The notes under the pieces are model-generated. The model had not been told where the DNA came from, did not search any database, and saw only the letters and a program-made list of their open reading frames with translations. DNA of 64,000 nucleotides from Stenotrophomonas sp. 610A2 (GTDB lineage Bacteria; Pseudomonadota; Gammaproteobacteria; Xanthomonadales; Xanthomonadaceae): contig NZ_CP130832.1 of the NCBI RefSeq assembly GCF_030549615.1, positions 3,162,001 to 3,226,000 of the forward strand, given 5' to 3'. The position numbers were made by a program, and so were the translations under genes. This document shows, piece after piece, positions 1,653 through 47,361 of the stretch; within the stretch, counting starts at the first letter, position 1, and each line of letters opens with the position of its first letter.

Positions 1653-2469
1653 GCGGGCAATTCTAGAGCCTGCGGCGGAAAGACGCGCTTCTTCAGTTTA
1701 TCCCGCGCAGCTCCCCTCTCCCCAACCCCTCTCCCGCGAGGGGAGAGGGGGCTTCAAGCTGCAATTGCGTGTATCGCATCATTGGACGCGGCATTAGGCA
1801 ACTGAGGAGCCTTATCCGCCAAATTGACCGCGGCGGTGACCGCCAGCTCAAGTCTCGGCTCCGGCTCCAGCTCCAGCTCCAGCTTTGGTTGCAATTGAGG
1901 TTGCTCTTGCAGTTGCAGTTGCAGTTGCTCGTGCTCGTGCTCGTGCTCGTGCTTTTGTTCTTGCTCAGCTTTTGACGTACCGGGCCCCTTCCGCAGCGAC
2001 GGAGCTGGCAGAAAAGACCCCGCACGGGGCGACGTGCAGGACGCACGTCGTTTTTCGACGATACAGGGATGTATCGTCGAAAAATCCTGCCAGCGGAGTG
2101 GACCCGCGTCGCGTAGCGGCGTGGGCGCGGAGGCAGGGTGTGCTTTCTTTTGGTTACCTTTTCTTTGCACAAGCAAAGAAAAGTAACTCGCTCCCCGCAG
2201 GGGAGTGAAAGCTCTGCGGTTGCTGTTGCTACCTTGGCCTTTAATCAAGAAACAGAGCAACAGCAAAACCCAAAGCTCCCCCCATCCGCCCTCCGGGCAC
2301 CTTCCCCCGCAAGCGGGAGAAGGGAGTGTCATGCAGCTCGGTGCATGTCTTCGGCCCGCCTTCGCGGGGATGCTCTTCGAACGCCCCGCTTTTCGACTGC
2401 ACGCCTATGGATTTCCGCCAAAAATCGGAGAACAGCAATATCACGCAACCCACCAAACAACCGTTCCAC
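1653..2469. repeat. Gene-free 0.8 kb mosaic of hairpin repeats and hexamer tracts
   Basis: No credible gene lies here. From left to right it holds: a hairpin unit at 1711-1755 (CCCCAACCCCTCTCCCG followed by its complement); hexanucleotide-like tracts at about 1857-1972 (GGCTCC, CAGCTC, GCAGTT and GCTCGT repeated three to four times each); a block of perfect hairpins at 1985-2205; and, inverted, at 2276-2325 the partner hairpin unit seen elsewhere beside the 1711 type. Reading frames that cross it in several phases come from the lack of stops in the hexamers. The block from about 2276 to 2400 is rich in short inverted repeats. The same two hairpin units recur near 9.5, 41.4 and 47.2 kb. Confidence 0.75.
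1985..2205. repeat. Highly structured element with three perfect hairpins
   Basis: Direct reading shows a 15-bp perfect stem at 2051-2065 / 2070-2084 (TTTTTCGACGATACA, loop GGGA), an 11-bp perfect stem at 2158-2168 / 2173-2183 (CTTTTCTTTGC, loop ACAA) and a short CTCCCC/GGGGAG stem near 2190-2204. The translated complement contains Lys-Glu-Lys-Val-Thr-Lys-Arg-Lys, a string I recall from spurious ORFs in many Xanthomonadaceae genomes. That suggests a dispersed repeat rather than a gene. Confidence 0.6.
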
Positions 2470-8266: not shown

Positions 8267-11200
8267 ATGTCGCCTATCACCTACCCCATTCCGCCGCTGC
8301 CCCGTTCGGGCCAGCTCCGCGCCTGGTGGCGCGCTCCGGCTTCCAGCAGCGCCCTGGCCTGGCATGTTGCCTGCGCCGCGCAGGCGCACGCCAAGCCGCT
8401 GTTGCTGATCACCCGTGATAACCACAGCGCGCATCAGCTGGTAGCTGACCTGCAGACGCTGCTGGGTGCAAACAGCCCGTTGCCGGTGGTGCCGTTCCCG
8501 GATTGGGAAACCCTGCCCTACGACCAGTTCAGCCCGCACCCGGACATCATTTCGCAGCGCCTGGCCGCATTGCACCGCTTGCCGACGCTGAAGCAAGGCA
8601 TCGTCGTGGTGCCGGTGCAGACGCTGCTGCAGCGACTGGCGCCGTTGAGCTACATCGTCGGTGGCAGCTTCGACCTGAAGGTTGGCCAGCGCCTGAACAT
8701 GGACGCGGAGAAGCGCCGCCTGGAAAGCGCGGGCTACCGCAATGTCGGGCAGGTAATGGACCCGGGCGACTTTGCCGTGCGCGGCGGCCTGCTCGATGTC
8801 TATCCGATGGGCGCCGATACGCCATTGCGCATCGAGCTGCTGGACGATGACATCGATTCCATCCGCGAGTTCGACCCGGAATCGCAGCGCTCGCTGGACA
8901 AGGTGACGGCAGTAAAGATGCTGCCCGGCCGCGAAGTGCCGATGGACGAGGCCAGCCTCAACAAGGTGCTGGCGTCATTGCGCGAACGCTTCGACGTGGA
9001 TACCCGCCGCAGCCCGCTGTACCAGGATCTGAAGGCCGGCCTGCTGCCTTCGGGCATCGAATACATGCTGCCGCTGTTCTTCAACCAGACCGCAACCCTG
9101 TTCGACTACCTGCCAGACGGTTTCATGACCGTGCTCGGCACCGGCGTCAGCGAAGCCTCGGATGCGTTCTGGCTGCAGACCAACAGCCGTTACGAACAAC
9201 GCCGCCACGACATCGAACGGCCGCTGCTGCCGCCGGATGAGATCTACCAGTCGCCGGACAAGCTACGCGAGCAGTTCAACAAAATGCCGCGCGTGGAAGT
9301 GTGCGCCGCCGATCATCCGCGCGCCGCCGAAGCGCAGCCACTGGGCGACCAGCCGCTGCCGCCATTGCCGGTCGCGGCCAAGGATGCGCCGGCTGGACAG
9401 GCGCTGAAGTCTTTCATCGAGCATTACCCGGGACGGGTGCTAATCGCGGCCGATTCGCCGGGACGGCGTGAGGCTTTGTTGGAAGTGCTGCAGGCTGCTG
9501 AATTGCGACCTGAGGTTGTTGCGAGCTTCAATGAGTTCCTGCCTCCCCCCATCGGGGGAAGGTGGCCCGGAGGGTCGGATGGGGGTAAGGCTCCCAGCCA
9601 AAGCAAGAGCAAGAGCAAGAGCGCCCTCACCCCAACCCCTCTCCCGTTAACGGGAGAGGGGCTTGAAGGCAAAGCGGGGCTCGCGCGCTTCGCCATTACC
9701 GTGGCGCCGCTGGATGACGGTTTTGCGCTTAGCGAGCCGGCCTTGGCCGTGCTTACCGAGCGTCAGCTGTTCCCGGAACGTGCTGGGCAGGCGCGGCGTA
9801 CGCGGCGGGCTGGGCGTGAGCCCGAGGCCATCATCCGTGACCTTGGTGAGCTGACCGAAGGCGCGCCCATCGTCCATGAAGATCATGGCGTTGGCCGCTA
9901 CCGTGGTTTGATCGCGATGGATGTCGGCGGCATGCCCGGCGAATTCCTCGACATCGAATACGCCAAGGGCGACCGCCTGTATGTACCGGTCGCGCAGCTG
10001 CACCTGATCAGCCGCTATTCCGGTGCGTCGCCGGAAACCGCGCCACTGCATTCACTCGGTGGCGAGCAATGGGCCAAGGCCAAGCGCAAGGCTGCCGAGA
10101 AAGTCCGCGACGTTGCTGCCGAGCTGCTGGAGATCCAGGCCCGTCGCCGCGCCCGCGCCGGTCTGGCGCTGGATATCGATCGATCGCTGTACGAGCCGTT
10201 CGCGGCCGGTTTCCCGTTCGAGGAAACCCCCGACCAGCAGGCGGCGATCGAAGCGACCCTGCGTGACCTGCAATCCAGCCAACCAATGGACCGCGTCGTC
10301 TGCGGCGACGTCGGCTTCGGCAAGACCGAGGTTGCGGTGCGTGCTGCGTTCGCCGCTGCCAGCGGTGGCAAGCAGGTTGCCGTATTGGTGCCGACCACGC
10401 TGCTGGCCGAACAGCATTACCGCAACTTCCGCGACCGCTTCGCCGATTACCCGCTGCGGGTGGAAGTGCTGTCGCGCTTCAAGACCAGCAAGGAAATCAA
10501 GGCCGAGCTCGACAAGGTCGCCGAAGGCTCCATCGACGTGATCATCGGCACGCACCGGCTGTTGCAGCCGGACGTGAAGTTCAAGGATCTTGGCCTGGTC
10601 ATCGTCGATGAAGAGCAGCGCTTTGGCGTGCGGCAGAAGGAAGCGCTGAAGGCGATGCGCGCCAATGTGCACCTGCTGACCCTGACCGCGACGCCGATCC
10701 CGCGTACCTTGAACATGGCGATGGCCGGCCTGCGTGATCTGTCGATCATCGCCACACCGCCGCCGAACCGTTTGGCAGTCAAGACCTTCATCACCGCCTG
10801 GGACAACGCGCAGCTGCGCGAGGCATTCCAGCGTGAGTTGTCGCGCGGCGGCCAGCTGTACTTCCTGCACAACGATGTGGAAAGCATGGGCCGGATGCAG
10901 CGCGAGCTGTCCGAGCTGGTGCCAGAGGCACGCATCGGCATGGCCCACGGGCAGATGCCGGAGCGCGAGCTGGAACGGGTGATGCTGGATTTCCAGAAGC
11001 AGCGCTTCAACGTGCTGCTGGCCAGTACCATCATCGAATCGGGTATCGACATCCCGAATGCCAACACCATCATCATCAACCGCGCCGACCGCTTCGGTCT
11101 TGCACAGTTGCATCAGCTGCGTGGTCGCGTCGGTCGCTCGCATCACCGCGCTTACGCTTACCTGCTGGTACCGGACAAGCGCTCGATCACCGGTGATGCG

Positions 11201-11869
11201 CAGAAGCGCCTGGAAGCCATCGCTTCGATGGATGAGCTGGGTGCCGGTTTCACCCTGGCAACGCACGATCTGGAAATCCGTGGTGCCGGTGAACTGCTCG
11301 GCGAAGACCAGAGCGGGCAGATGGCCGAGATTGGCTTCAGCCTTTACACCGAGCTGCTGGAACGCGCGGTGCGCTCGATCAAGTCCGGCAAGCTGCCGGA
11401 TCTGGATGCCGGCGAAGAAGCTCGCGGTGCCGACGTCGAACTGCATGTACCGGCCTTGATTCCGGAAGACTACCTGCCCGACGTACACACCCGCCTGACC
11501 CTGTACAAGCGCATCAGCTCGGCGCGCGACAGTGAGCGCCTGCGCGAACTGCAGGTGGAAATGATTGATCGCTTCGGCCTGTTGCCGGATCCGGTCAAGC
11601 ATCTGTTCGCCATTGCCGAGCTCAAGCTGCAGGCCAACGAACTGGGCATCCGCAAGCTGGAGCTGGGTGAGAACGGCGGCCGCATCGTCTTCGACAGCAA
11701 GCCCAACATCGACCCGATGGTGGTGATCCAGCTGATCCAGAAGCAGCCCAAGCTCTACCAGATGGATGGCCCGGACAAGCTGCGCATCAAGCACCCGTTG
11801 CCGGAAAGCGCGGACCGATTCAACGCGGCAAGGGCACTGCTGACCACGCTGCACCCGGGACGCGCCTGA
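8267..11869 (+). CDS. mfd: Mfd, transcription-repair coupling factor, with repeat-derived insert
   Basis: A 1200-residue ATPase that pushes stalled RNA polymerase off DNA lesions and recruits UvrA. N-terminal UvrB-like module; RNA-polymerase-interacting domain around residue 540 (HEDHGVGRYRG); Walker A GDVGFGKTEVAV; DEEQ box; TATPIPRTLNMA; and motif VI LHQLRGRVGRSHHR followed by the TRG and C-terminal domains. The family is usually close to 1150 residues. The excess matches an insert at about residues 426-467, encoded by 9541-9668, which is Gly/Pro/Ser-rich with Lys-Ser repeats. The frame stays open across it, so the gene is probably still functional. It starts at the ATG at 8267. Confidence 0.96.
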   Translation: MSPITYPIPPLPRSGQLRAWWRAPASSSALAWHVACAAQAHAKPLLLITRDNHSAHQLVADLQTLLGANSPLPVVPFPDWETLPYDQFSPHPDIISQRLAALHRLPTLKQGIVVVPVQTLLQRLAPLSYIVGGSFDLKVGQRLNMDAEKRRLESAGYRNVGQVMDPGDFAVRGGLLDVYPMGADTPLRIELLDDDIDSIREFDPESQRSLDKVTAVKMLPGREVPMDEASLNKVLASLRERFDVDTRRSPLYQDLKAGLLPSGIEYMLPLFFNQTATLFDYLPDGFMTVLGTGVSEASDAFWLQTNSRYEQRRHDIERPLLPPDEIYQSPDKLREQFNKMPRVEVCAADHPRAAEAQPLGDQPLPPLPVAAKDAPAGQALKSFIEHYPGRVLIAADSPGRREALLEVLQAAELRPEVVASFNEFLPPPIGGRWPGGSDGGKAPSQSKSKSKSALTPTPLPLTGEGLEGKAGLARFAITVAPLDDGFALSEPALAVLTERQLFPERAGQARRTRRAGREPEAIIRDLGELTEGAPIVHEDHGVGRYRGLIAMDVGGMPGEFLDIEYAKGDRLYVPVAQLHLISRYSGASPETAPLHSLGGEQWAKAKRKAAEKVRDVAAELLEIQARRRARAGLALDIDRSLYEPFAAGFPFEETPDQQAAIEATLRDLQSSQPMDRVVCGDVGFGKTEVAVRAAFAAASGGKQVAVLVPTTLLAEQHYRNFRDRFADYPLRVEVLSRFKTSKEIKAELDKVAEGSIDVIIGTHRLLQPDVKFKDLGLVIVDEEQRFGVRQKEALKAMRANVHLLTLTATPIPRTLNMAMAGLRDLSIIATPPPNRLAVKTFITAWDNAQLREAFQRELSRGGQLYFLHNDVESMGRMQRELSELVPEARIGMAHGQMPERELERVMLDFQKQRFNVLLASTIIESGIDIPNANTIIINRADRFGLAQLHQLRGRVGRSHHRAYAYLLVPDKRSITGDAQKRLEAIASMDELGAGFTLATHDLEIRGAGELLGEDQSGQMAEIGFSLYTELLERAVRSIKSGKLPDLDAGEEARGADVELHVPALIPEDYLPDVHTRLTLYKRISSARDSERLRELQVEMIDRFGLLPDPVKHLFAIAELKLQANELGIRKLELGENGGRIVFDSKPNIDPMVVIQLIQKQPKLYQMDGPDKLRIKHPLPESADRFNAARALLTTLHPGRA
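9541..9668 (+). repeat. Two-hairpin repeat element translated in frame inside mfd
   Basis: This stretch matches the intergenic elements near 41.4 and 47.2 kb. A left unit at 9543-9585 has CCCCCC..GGGGGAAGGTG followed by a GGCCCGGAGGGTCGGATGGG tail. A short core (9599-9622) repeats AAGAGC. A right unit at 9623-9664 has CCCTCACCCCAACCCCTC then an inverted CCCGTTAACGGG stem. It encodes the insert at about Mfd residues 426-467, which includes Ser-Lys-Ser-Lys-Ser. The element's effective length must be a multiple of three, since the mfd frame continues normally. Confidence 0.8.
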
Positions 11870-41083: not shown

Positions 41084-41342
41084 GCTTTGGCTTTGGCTTT
41101 GGCTTTGGCTTTGGCTTTGGCTTTGGCTTTGGCTTTGGCTTTGGCCTTGGCCTTGGCTTTGGCCTTGGCTTTGGCCTTGGCCTTGGCCTTGGCCTTGGCT
41201 TTGGCCTTGGCTTTGGCCTTGGCTTTGGCCTTGGCTTTGGCCTTGGCTTTGGCCTTGGCTTTGGCCTTGGCCTTGGCCTTGGCCTTGGCCTTGGCCTTGG
41301 CCTTGGCTTTGGCCTTGGCCTTGGCCTTGGCTTTGGCTTTGG
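41084..41342. repeat. Hexanucleotide tandem array (GGCTTT/GGCCTT)n
   Basis: About 43 uninterrupted six-base units over 259 bases. Only two unit forms appear, GGCTTT and GGCCTT, in a mixed order (a run of TTT units, then irregular alternation). The purity suggests recent slippage expansion or selection for a structured transcript. Copy number is likely to differ between strains or assemblies. Confidence 0.9.
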
Positions 41343-41603
41343 GCCTCCCCAGAAAAGCCTGAACAACTTCCTTCTCCCGCTTGCGGGAGAAGGTGCCCGA
41401 AGGGCGGATGAGGGGGCCTTTGATCTGGGTTTGGCTTTTCAAGCAAAAGCTTGCCCTCACCCCAACCCCTCTCCCGCGGGCGGGAGAGGGGCTCCAAGCA
41501 GAGGCACAAGCACCAGCCACAGCCACAGCCACAGCCAAAGCCAAAACCAAAACCAAAGCCAAAGCCAAAGCCAAAGCCAAAGCTAAAGCGAAAGCCAAAA
41601 CAG

Positions 41604-47136: not shown

Positions 47137-47361
47137 GCGGAAGTGAAGCCTGCAGATCGTAAAAATGTCTGAAGCCTTCCTTCTCCCGCATGCGGGAGAA
47201 GGTGCCCGAAGGGCGGATGAGGGGAGCTTTTGTAGCTTTTGGAGCTATTAGAGCTTTTGGAGCTTTAAAGCGCCCTCACCCCAACCCCTCTCCCGCGAGC
47301 GGGAGAGGGGCTTCAGCTGCAGTTGCGGGCTTGGCGGTGAACTGCCTGCCTTCGCGCAGCC
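47137..47361. repeat. Two-hairpin repeat element with nine-base core repeat
   Basis: No gene. Left unit 47179-47224: stem CCTTCTCCCGC / GCGGGAGAAGG then TGCCCGAAGGGCGGATG. Core 47225-47271: four imperfect nine-base units of the form GGAGCTTTT. Right unit 47272-47313: GCCCTCACCCCAACCCCTC and stem CTCCCGC / GCGGGAG. This is the clearest full-length copy in the window and the reference for the others. Confidence 0.8.

What the first reader, a model, noticed from the sequence alone, without database searches (positions are those of the whole stretch)
9541..9668. Repeat element translated in frame inside mfd
The stretch matches, unit for unit, the two-hairpin element that is intergenic at 41.4 and 47.2 kb. 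In mfd it is read through and adds about 42 residues near 426-467, rich in Gly, Pro and Ser with Ser-Lys repeats. The position corresponds to the junction region of the UvrB-like module, probably a surface loop. The core repeat AAGAGC is six bases long, so slippage there would change the length without breaking the frame.
Basis: partly seen in the sequence, partly recalled or inferred. Interest (0 to 1): 0.72.

Follow-up and report, generated by a model that had tools for sequence, protein, structure and literature searches.

The report
Repeat DNA repeatedly translated inside Mfd
A scattered palindromic DNA repeat sits inside the DNA-repair gene mfd and is read through as a probably floppy loop, and in related bacteria the same loop holds several unrelated repeats, a clear natural example of repeat DNA becoming part of a widely conserved protein.

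Summary
Window 9541-9668 is a two-hairpin repeat read in frame in mfd. At least 115 sites of this repeat family were found in its genome. Mfd of the insert-free relative Stenotrophomonas sp. Iso1 is 44 residues shorter.

The insert lies in domain D3, not the UvrB-like module: it splits Pfam MFD_D3, and AlphaFold models it as unstructured (pLDDT 45-48, neighbouring blocks 77-93).

In one-genome-per-species samples, 27 of 129 genomes of the window's family and at least 21 of 124 of a second family carry long in-frame inserts there, from at least three unrelated repeat groups: CCCCAACCC-type (both orientations), CGTC-REPs and GTAG-REPs. In five of five genomes tested the loop DNA matches dispersed copies in that genome. 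MetH shows the same.

Most likely: palindromic repeats spread, copies landing in genes are purged, and a few in-frame copies survive in tolerant loops, then decay. In-frame palindromes and REPs in repair genes are published (PMC3733652); mfd is not named in its main text. New member of a known kind, with strong same-site recurrence. Effect on Mfd and the mobiliser are untested.

The parts
8267..11869 (+). mfd, transcription-repair coupling factor, 1200 aa
9542..9664 (+). translated two-hairpin repeat (CCCCAACCC-type, called family A here); Mfd is 44 residues longer than that of insert-free Stenotrophomonas sp. Iso1
9541..9563 (+). left hairpin, decayed (interrupted stem)
9605..9622 (+). three AAGAGC units in the spacer, read as Ser-Lys repeats
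   Evidence: two residues fewer at protein level in P0002 and P0003
9636..9661 (+). right hairpin, intact 11-bp stem with TTAA loop
   Evidence: up to 98% to other genomic copies
2272..2326 (-). half element (left arm) of family A
1714..1736 (+). match to the right-arm pattern, 1 mismatch

Best explanation
The Mfd insert is a copy of a dispersed palindromic repeat that entered a tolerant loop of domain D3 in an ancestor of the window's Stenotrophomonas clade and is now read as part of the protein. Several repeat families multiply in these genomes. Copies that land in genes are almost always lost; those that land in frame, without stops, in a loop that tolerates a disordered segment are kept, then change by point mutation, hexamer slippage and deletion of an arm. 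The D3 loop of Mfd is such a site and has been filled several times, by unrelated repeats, across Lysobacterales. Shown: identity of the insert with genomic repeats, its open reading frame, its absence in relatives, same-site presence of at least three unrelated repeat groups and of family A in both orientations, and predicted disorder. Inferred: how the repeats move, that tolerance rather than benefit keeps them, and that the protein is made and works.
For: Own-genome matches of the loop DNA: 81 for the window insert, 87 (GTAG type, G340), 59 (CGTC type, G255), 54 (G316), 81 (G195) (each count includes the query's own place and opposite-strand hits at the same sites, so it is not a count of sites, and only 40 candidates were scored per search). 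Same-site inserts: 27 of 129 genomes of the window's family and at least 21 of 124 of a second family. By type (protein patterns, some labels by hand), of the 27: family A 15, A reversed 3, CGTC 6, unassigned 3; of the 21: related CCCCAACCC types 9, CGTC 8, GTAG 4. In 43 more distant gammaproteobacterial loci (53-57% identical) none has more than 21 bases there. Every loop printed and all 28 MetH loops have a length divisible by 3. Parsimony needs at least 69 state changes on a 333-row Mfd tree built without the loop, and 30 for repeat versus none. Purging: of 115 sites in the window's genome, 17 have a frame open for 60 codons on both sides, and only 4 of these lie inside a gene that a family model recognises (mfd, metH, recD, an E2 acyltransferase). 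Loop versus flanks, window against P0003: 32 of 43 versus 566 of 600 identical. Disorder.
Against: Gains cannot be separated from losses: rejection of family A as one clade (AU p 0.0002) also fits one old insertion with many losses. Some same-family loops look inherited (L179 and L067 92% identical, L204 and L202 88%). For L204 and L217, own-genome copies are not clearly closer than other species' Mfd loops. No transposase is tied to family A: its patterns were not found within 1.5 kb of the genome's two Y1_Tnp genes. The tree overstates prevalence: 198 of its 333 rows came from protein searches with insert-bearing queries and many loci were fetched because they had inserts; the 27/129 and 21/124 figures do not rest on the tree. 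Three of the 27 long loops (G160, G345, G309) were not assigned to a repeat family. Only five loops were tested for copies in their own genome.
Confidence: 0.82

Rival explanations
1. One ancient insertion of a family A repeat in Mfd of the family's ancestor, inherited vertically, with many losses and with arms refreshed by gene conversion from genomic copies; other families are minor later replacements.
For: Most family A inserts share frame and nearly the same junction (LPSPxG...TPTPLP.GEGL) across Stenotrophomonas, the X. sacchari/translucens group, Pseudoxanthomonas and Lysobacter; several pairs are 88-92% identical. The window's right arm is closer to its own genome's copies (98%) than to other Mfd loops in the set (best 88% over 43 bases), as conversion would give.
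Against: Family A occurs in reversed orientation in the same loop (L184, L190, L194, P0048), and unrelated CGTC and GTAG repeats occupy it in many lineages, so several independent entries are needed in any case.
Confidence: 0.12
2. The site is targeted or the insert is favoured: hairpin DNA or the unstable Ser-Lys stretch tunes Mfd level or activity, and hence repair and mutation rate.
For: Many published intragenic REPs lie in DNA synthesis and repair genes (PMC3733652, section read); in the window's genome two of the four recognised in-frame hosts are repair genes, mfd and recD; the Ser-Lys stretch differs by one hexamer's worth between close relatives.
Against: MetH, a metabolic enzyme, shows the same recurrent filling; the loop diverges faster than its flanks; most species lack the insert; the repeats are not unusually open in frame (2.44 of 6 frames against 2.58 simulated).
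Confidence: 0.05
3. A native Mfd loop that only resembles the repeat by chance.
For: Close relatives of the window share the insert.
Against: 0 of 100 shuffles give even one match to the repeat pattern; 81 genomic matches, the query's own place included; absent in an 89%-identical relative and in the loci titled S. maltophilia.
Confidence: 0.01

Closest known systems
Rickettsia palindromic elements (RPE), protein-coding palindromes (Ogata 2002, Claverie and Ogata 2003: recalled, and cited in passages of PMC3733652; not read)
   Same: Dispersed palindromic repeats read in frame inside open reading frames that likely encode functional proteins.
   Different: Different sequences and hosts; here one loop is filled by several unrelated repeat groups across many genera.
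Intragenic GTAG and CGTC REPs (Di Nocera et al. 2013, PMC3733652: abstract, sections 5, 6, 15 and passages read)
   Same: REP singles and dimers in genes, dimers or groups encoding 20-30 residues, many in DNA synthesis and repair genes; different REPs at about the same site in recB of X. campestris and X. oryzae. The CGTC and GTAG inserts found here in other species' Mfd look like these.
   Different: mfd is not named in the main text (0 occurrences; supplement not open to me). The window's family A shows no GTAG or CGTC tag at its ends.
REPINs / BIMEs (PMC3116915: search listing and start of abstract only)
   Same: Recalled: inverted REP pair around a variable spacer, high copy number.
   Different: Family A was not found beside the genome's two RAYT-like genes.
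GGGAATC heptamer repeats of Xanthomonas (PMC4692102: passages read)
   Same: A further dispersed repeat; similar motifs were found here in the MetH region of relatives.
   Different: Not found in any of 59 Mfd loops of 45 bases or more; tandem heptamers, not two-hairpin dimers.

Membership tests
In-frame protein-coding palindromic repeats (RPE-like class) | Same sequence dispersed through the genome | tested here: met
   at least 115 sites; copies at 41.4 and 47.2 kb
In-frame protein-coding palindromic repeats (RPE-like class) | Inserted in frame in a conserved protein and absent from homologues | tested here: met
In-frame protein-coding palindromic repeats (RPE-like class) | Protein is expressed with the insert | not testable with these tools
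   needs mass spectrometry
GTAG REP (window insert) | GTAG-type tetranucleotide next to the hairpin | tested here: not met
   read directly from the copies at 9.5, 41.4 and 47.2 kb
GTAG REP (window insert) | Association with a RAYT gene | tested here: not met
   0 of 2 Y1_Tnp loci carry family A patterns within 1.5 kb; one (L142) carries GTAG repeats
CGTC REP (window insert) | CGTC tag, 8-9 bp stem with AT at its base | tested here: not met
   read directly; family features from PMC3733652 section 6
CGTC REP (loop of L084; also L217, L205) | CGTC tag, stem and CCA-type tail, inverted dimer | tested here: met
   CGTCATCCCCGCGAAGGCGGGGATCCAG... CTGGATTCCCGCCTTCGCGGGAATGACG in L084; L217, with 59 matches in its own genome. 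Other loops were labelled CGTC by protein pattern only
GTAG REP (loops of L206, L209, L212, L219) | GTAG-tagged (GTGG in L219) hairpins in inverted pair, many genomic copies | tested here: met
   (genomic copies tested for L209 only)
GTAG REP (loops of L206, L209, L212, L219) | Mobilised by a RAYT | not tested
   RAYT genes were not sought in those genomes
MITE | Terminal inverted repeats of a known transposase and target-site duplication | not tested
   Exact insertion points and target duplications were not mapped; no cognate transposase was identified for family A

The most novel reading that the evidence does not exclude
The D3 loop of Mfd, and a few loops like it, act as standing docking points where unrelated palindromic repeats are repeatedly recruited because a translated, length-unstable disordered segment there adjusts Mfd and thus the cell's repair and mutation rate; the repeat families would then serve as a source of reversible tuning of a repair protein.
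Probability: 0.05. Interest if true: 0.88.

Novelty: new member of a known kind. Interest (0 to 1): 0.56.

Why it matters
It gives a densely sampled natural series (empty, filled, decayed, one-arm remnant, replaced) of how repeat DNA becomes protein in a widely conserved repair factor. Because at least three unrelated repeat groups reach the same loop, it separates what the repeat does from what the host loop allows, and lets the question 'where do new disordered segments in core proteins come from' be tested with natural alleles.

Tried and rejected
Chance or native loop: rejected by shuffles and genomic copies. Location in the UvrB-like module: rejected, it is D3 (the UvrB module is D1a-D2-D1b, PMC7864632, passages). 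Repeat pre-adapted for coding: the 36 strict dimers of the genome are open in 2.44 of 6 frames on average against 2.58 for simulated sequence, and 13 of 36 have a length divisible by 3, so no sign of it. RAYT as mobiliser of family A: not supported. Restriction of the phenomenon to Mfd: rejected by MetH. Hotspot beyond the order: 0 of 43 distant loci; in a class-wide sample 8 of 340 matching genomes outside the order gave two matches, which I did not resolve further. Rfam: only matches under the families' gathering scores, taken as chance. A single-sequence fold was useless (pLDDT 36); the 38-sequence one was usable. Paper searches for the repeat's letters and for mfd with palindromes listed nothing relevant among the rows shown (15 of 121 and 15 of 75 papers).

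Rows set aside: G331 (second hit unrelated), G105 and G350 (pieces on different contigs), G346 (second full match elsewhere), G062 and G204 (pieces on different contigs), G182 (adjoining pieces). Tree: 376 rows cut to 333 (6 too short, the rest duplicates); labels by protein pattern, with hand changes to L200, P0225, P0170, P0020, P0088, L222, P0066, P0028 and L227; family names A, A2, A3, B, C are mine. Of the 17 open-frame sites, mfd, metH, recD and E2 were accepted. For the other 13 sites, 14 frames were scanned with Pfam: two matched a family above its cut-off, a ParA-type ATPase (201727) and a ribonucleotide reductase small chain (340344), but in both the repeat lies upstream of the domain in a stretch with poor coding score, so I take it as 5' of the gene; one had a match below cut-off; 11 had none. 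Sites in genes but out of frame or at gene ends were not counted. MetH motif counts are for the central 660 bases of each locus, with mismatches allowed and no shuffled control.

Full report
What is there. mfd runs without interruption from 8267 to 11869 on the plus strand, 1200 codons, and is recognised as transcription-repair coupling factor. Bases 9542-9664 are a repeat: a decayed left hairpin, a short GC-rich tail, a spacer with three AAGAGC units, and an intact right hairpin with an 11-bp stem. The same arrangement stands at 41.4 and 47.2 kb. I call it family A; its right arm carries the motif CCCCAACCCC.

How common it is in the genome. The window lies in a single-contig genome of 4.68 Mb. 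Hits from three searches merge into 115 sites, a lower bound because those searches listed or scored only part of their candidates. The mfd right arm is up to 98% identical to other sites; near-full-length identity is only 74-77%, so the left arm has drifted. Thirty-six strict dimers have spacers enriched in AAAGC/GCTTT (91 in 2,080 bases against a simulated mean of 39 and maximum of 54), so hexamers like the one inside mfd belong to the element.

Is it foreign to Mfd? Of 80 Mfd loci from named genomes, 43 are distant (L098-L140, 53-57% identical); none of these has more than 21 bases in the measured gap. Among the 37 nearer ones, Stenotrophomonas sp. Iso1 (best segment 89%) and the four loci titled S. 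maltophilia lack the insert; Stenotrophomonas sp. SY1 has a related, shorter one. The window's nearest database relatives share it in changing forms, including one Ser-Lys pair fewer, shortened remnants and apparent losses. The insert diverges faster than its flanks: against P0003, 32 of 43 aligned loop residues but 566 of 600 flank residues are identical.

Where in the protein. Pfam MFD_D3 is matched in one stretch, whole, in Iso1 Mfd but in two stretches in the window's. Against E. coli Mfd the break falls between residues 419 and 430. AlphaFold on 38 sequences models the insert at pLDDT 45-48 with no secondary structure, between a helix (block means 93, then 77 at the edge) and a strand (88) of D3; the fragment matches solved Mfd structures best.

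A recurrent site. A 221-residue insert-free fragment was searched in 398 one-per-species genomes of the order; 381 matched. In the window's family (group code f1) all 129 matched: 27 have loops of 63 bases or more, 6 have 10-16 extra residues, 96 have at most 7. In a second family (f12) of 124, 24 gave two matches; 3 were set aside, leaving 21 long loops (66 bases or more), a lower bound because single-match rows of that family were mostly not measured. Of the other 128 matching genomes three gave two matches, all from contig ends or adjoining pieces; their loops were not measured.

What fills it. Of the 27: family A in 15, family A reversed in 3, CGTC-type REP in 6, unassigned in 3. Of the 21: related CCCCAACCC types in 9, CGTC-type in 8, GTAG-type in 4 (labels by protein pattern, some by hand). 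GTAG and CGTC are the two published REP super-families (PMC3733652, abstract and sections 5, 6 read). For five genomes the loop DNA was searched in that same genome: GTAG (G340) 87 matches, CGTC (G255) 59, CCCCAACCC type (G316) 54, family A in G195 81, window 81. These counts include the query itself and opposite-strand hits at the same sites, and each search scored only 40 candidates. One-armed remnants such as RHPREGGND (P0172, P0187, P0212) look like dimers that lost an arm.

How many events. On a 333-row Mfd tree built without the loop, at least 69 changes of loop state are needed, 30 for repeat versus none, 29 for A and 31 for CGTC (FastTree; rows enriched for inserts, 198 of 333 from protein searches with insert-bearing queries; labels partly by hand). 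On a 77-row tree of chosen rows the counts are 31 and 16, and family A as one clade is rejected (AU p 0.0002). These counts do not tell gain from loss. What forces several independent entries is the nature of the inserts: unrelated families, and family A in both orientations. Within groups, inheritance is likely (92% L179-L067, 88% L204-L202).

Not only Mfd. In the window's genome, 17 of 115 sites have a frame open for 60 codons on both sides. Four lie in frame inside recognised genes: mfd, metH (44 residues in the B12 activation domain), recD (between RecD_N and the ATPase) and a dihydrolipoyl acyltransferase (between E3-binding and catalytic domains). The other 13 showed no gene around the repeat: no family match above cut-off, except two where the repeat lies upstream of the matched domain. 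Since most of a bacterial chromosome is coding (recalled), this is far below random landing. In MetH of relatives, 146 of 149 genomes matched; 28 loci, chosen mostly as best matches to the insert-bearing query, have loops of 72-156 bases, all divisible by 3: family A motifs in 6, GTAG-like in 4, GGGAATC-like heptamers alone in 12, none in 6 (no shuffled control). Others have an empty site (pieces 12-18 bases apart in G047 and G341). GGGAATC repeats are published for Xanthomonas (PMC4692102, passages read); they were in none of 59 Mfd loops.

Mechanism. Most likely, repeats of several families copy themselves around these genomes by means not identified here; insertions in genes are purged unless in frame in a tolerant loop; survivors lose their hairpins, change length by hexamer slippage or arm deletion, and are sometimes lost or replaced. 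Tolerance needs no benefit, and the MetH case and loop divergence favour it. A benefit to Mfd remains possible: many published intragenic REPs lie in DNA synthesis and repair genes (PMC3733652 section 15), and two of four hosts here are repair genes.

Known or new. In-frame palindromes (RPE) and intragenic REPs are known. mfd does not occur in the main text of PMC3733652 (supplement not open), and the rows shown by the searches held no title on repeats in mfd. Hence: new member of a known kind, notable for same-site recurrence of unrelated repeats.

Noticed in passing
window 41087-41342 and 41515-41599: Long TTGGCC-type hexamer array (42.7 copies) and an AGCCAA array (14.2 copies) flank the repeat at 41.4 kb; likely length-variable.
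   Followed up: partly
window 47223-47266: Nine-base GGAGCTTTT tandem repeat (4.9 copies) in the spacer of the 47.2 kb element; other copies have similar AAAGC/GCTTT arrays.
   Followed up: partly
L308 1318-1450 (G000:C1:2667813-2667945): In-frame family A dimer, 44 codons, in metH of the same genome; the same MetH region holds family A, GTAG-like or GGGAATC-like repeats in relatives.
   Followed up: partly
L054 (G000:C1:4643840-4646119, minus strand): recD of the same genome carries an in-frame family A insert between RecD_N and the ATPase domain.
   Followed up: partly
L020 (G000:C1:637093-638613, minus strand): A dihydrolipoyl acyltransferase (E2) carries a half repeat in frame between the E3-binding and catalytic domains.
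   Followed up: partly
L142 1327-2032: One of two Y1_Tnp (RAYT-like) genes of the genome has GTAGTGCCGAGC-type GTAG repeats on both sides, an ordinary REPtron layout.
   Followed up: no
L188 1444-1533: Mfd loop of G160 holds a long imperfect inverted repeat (CCGCGGGACGCGGGGGGC / GCCCCCTGCGTCCCGCGG) of no family named here.
   Followed up: no
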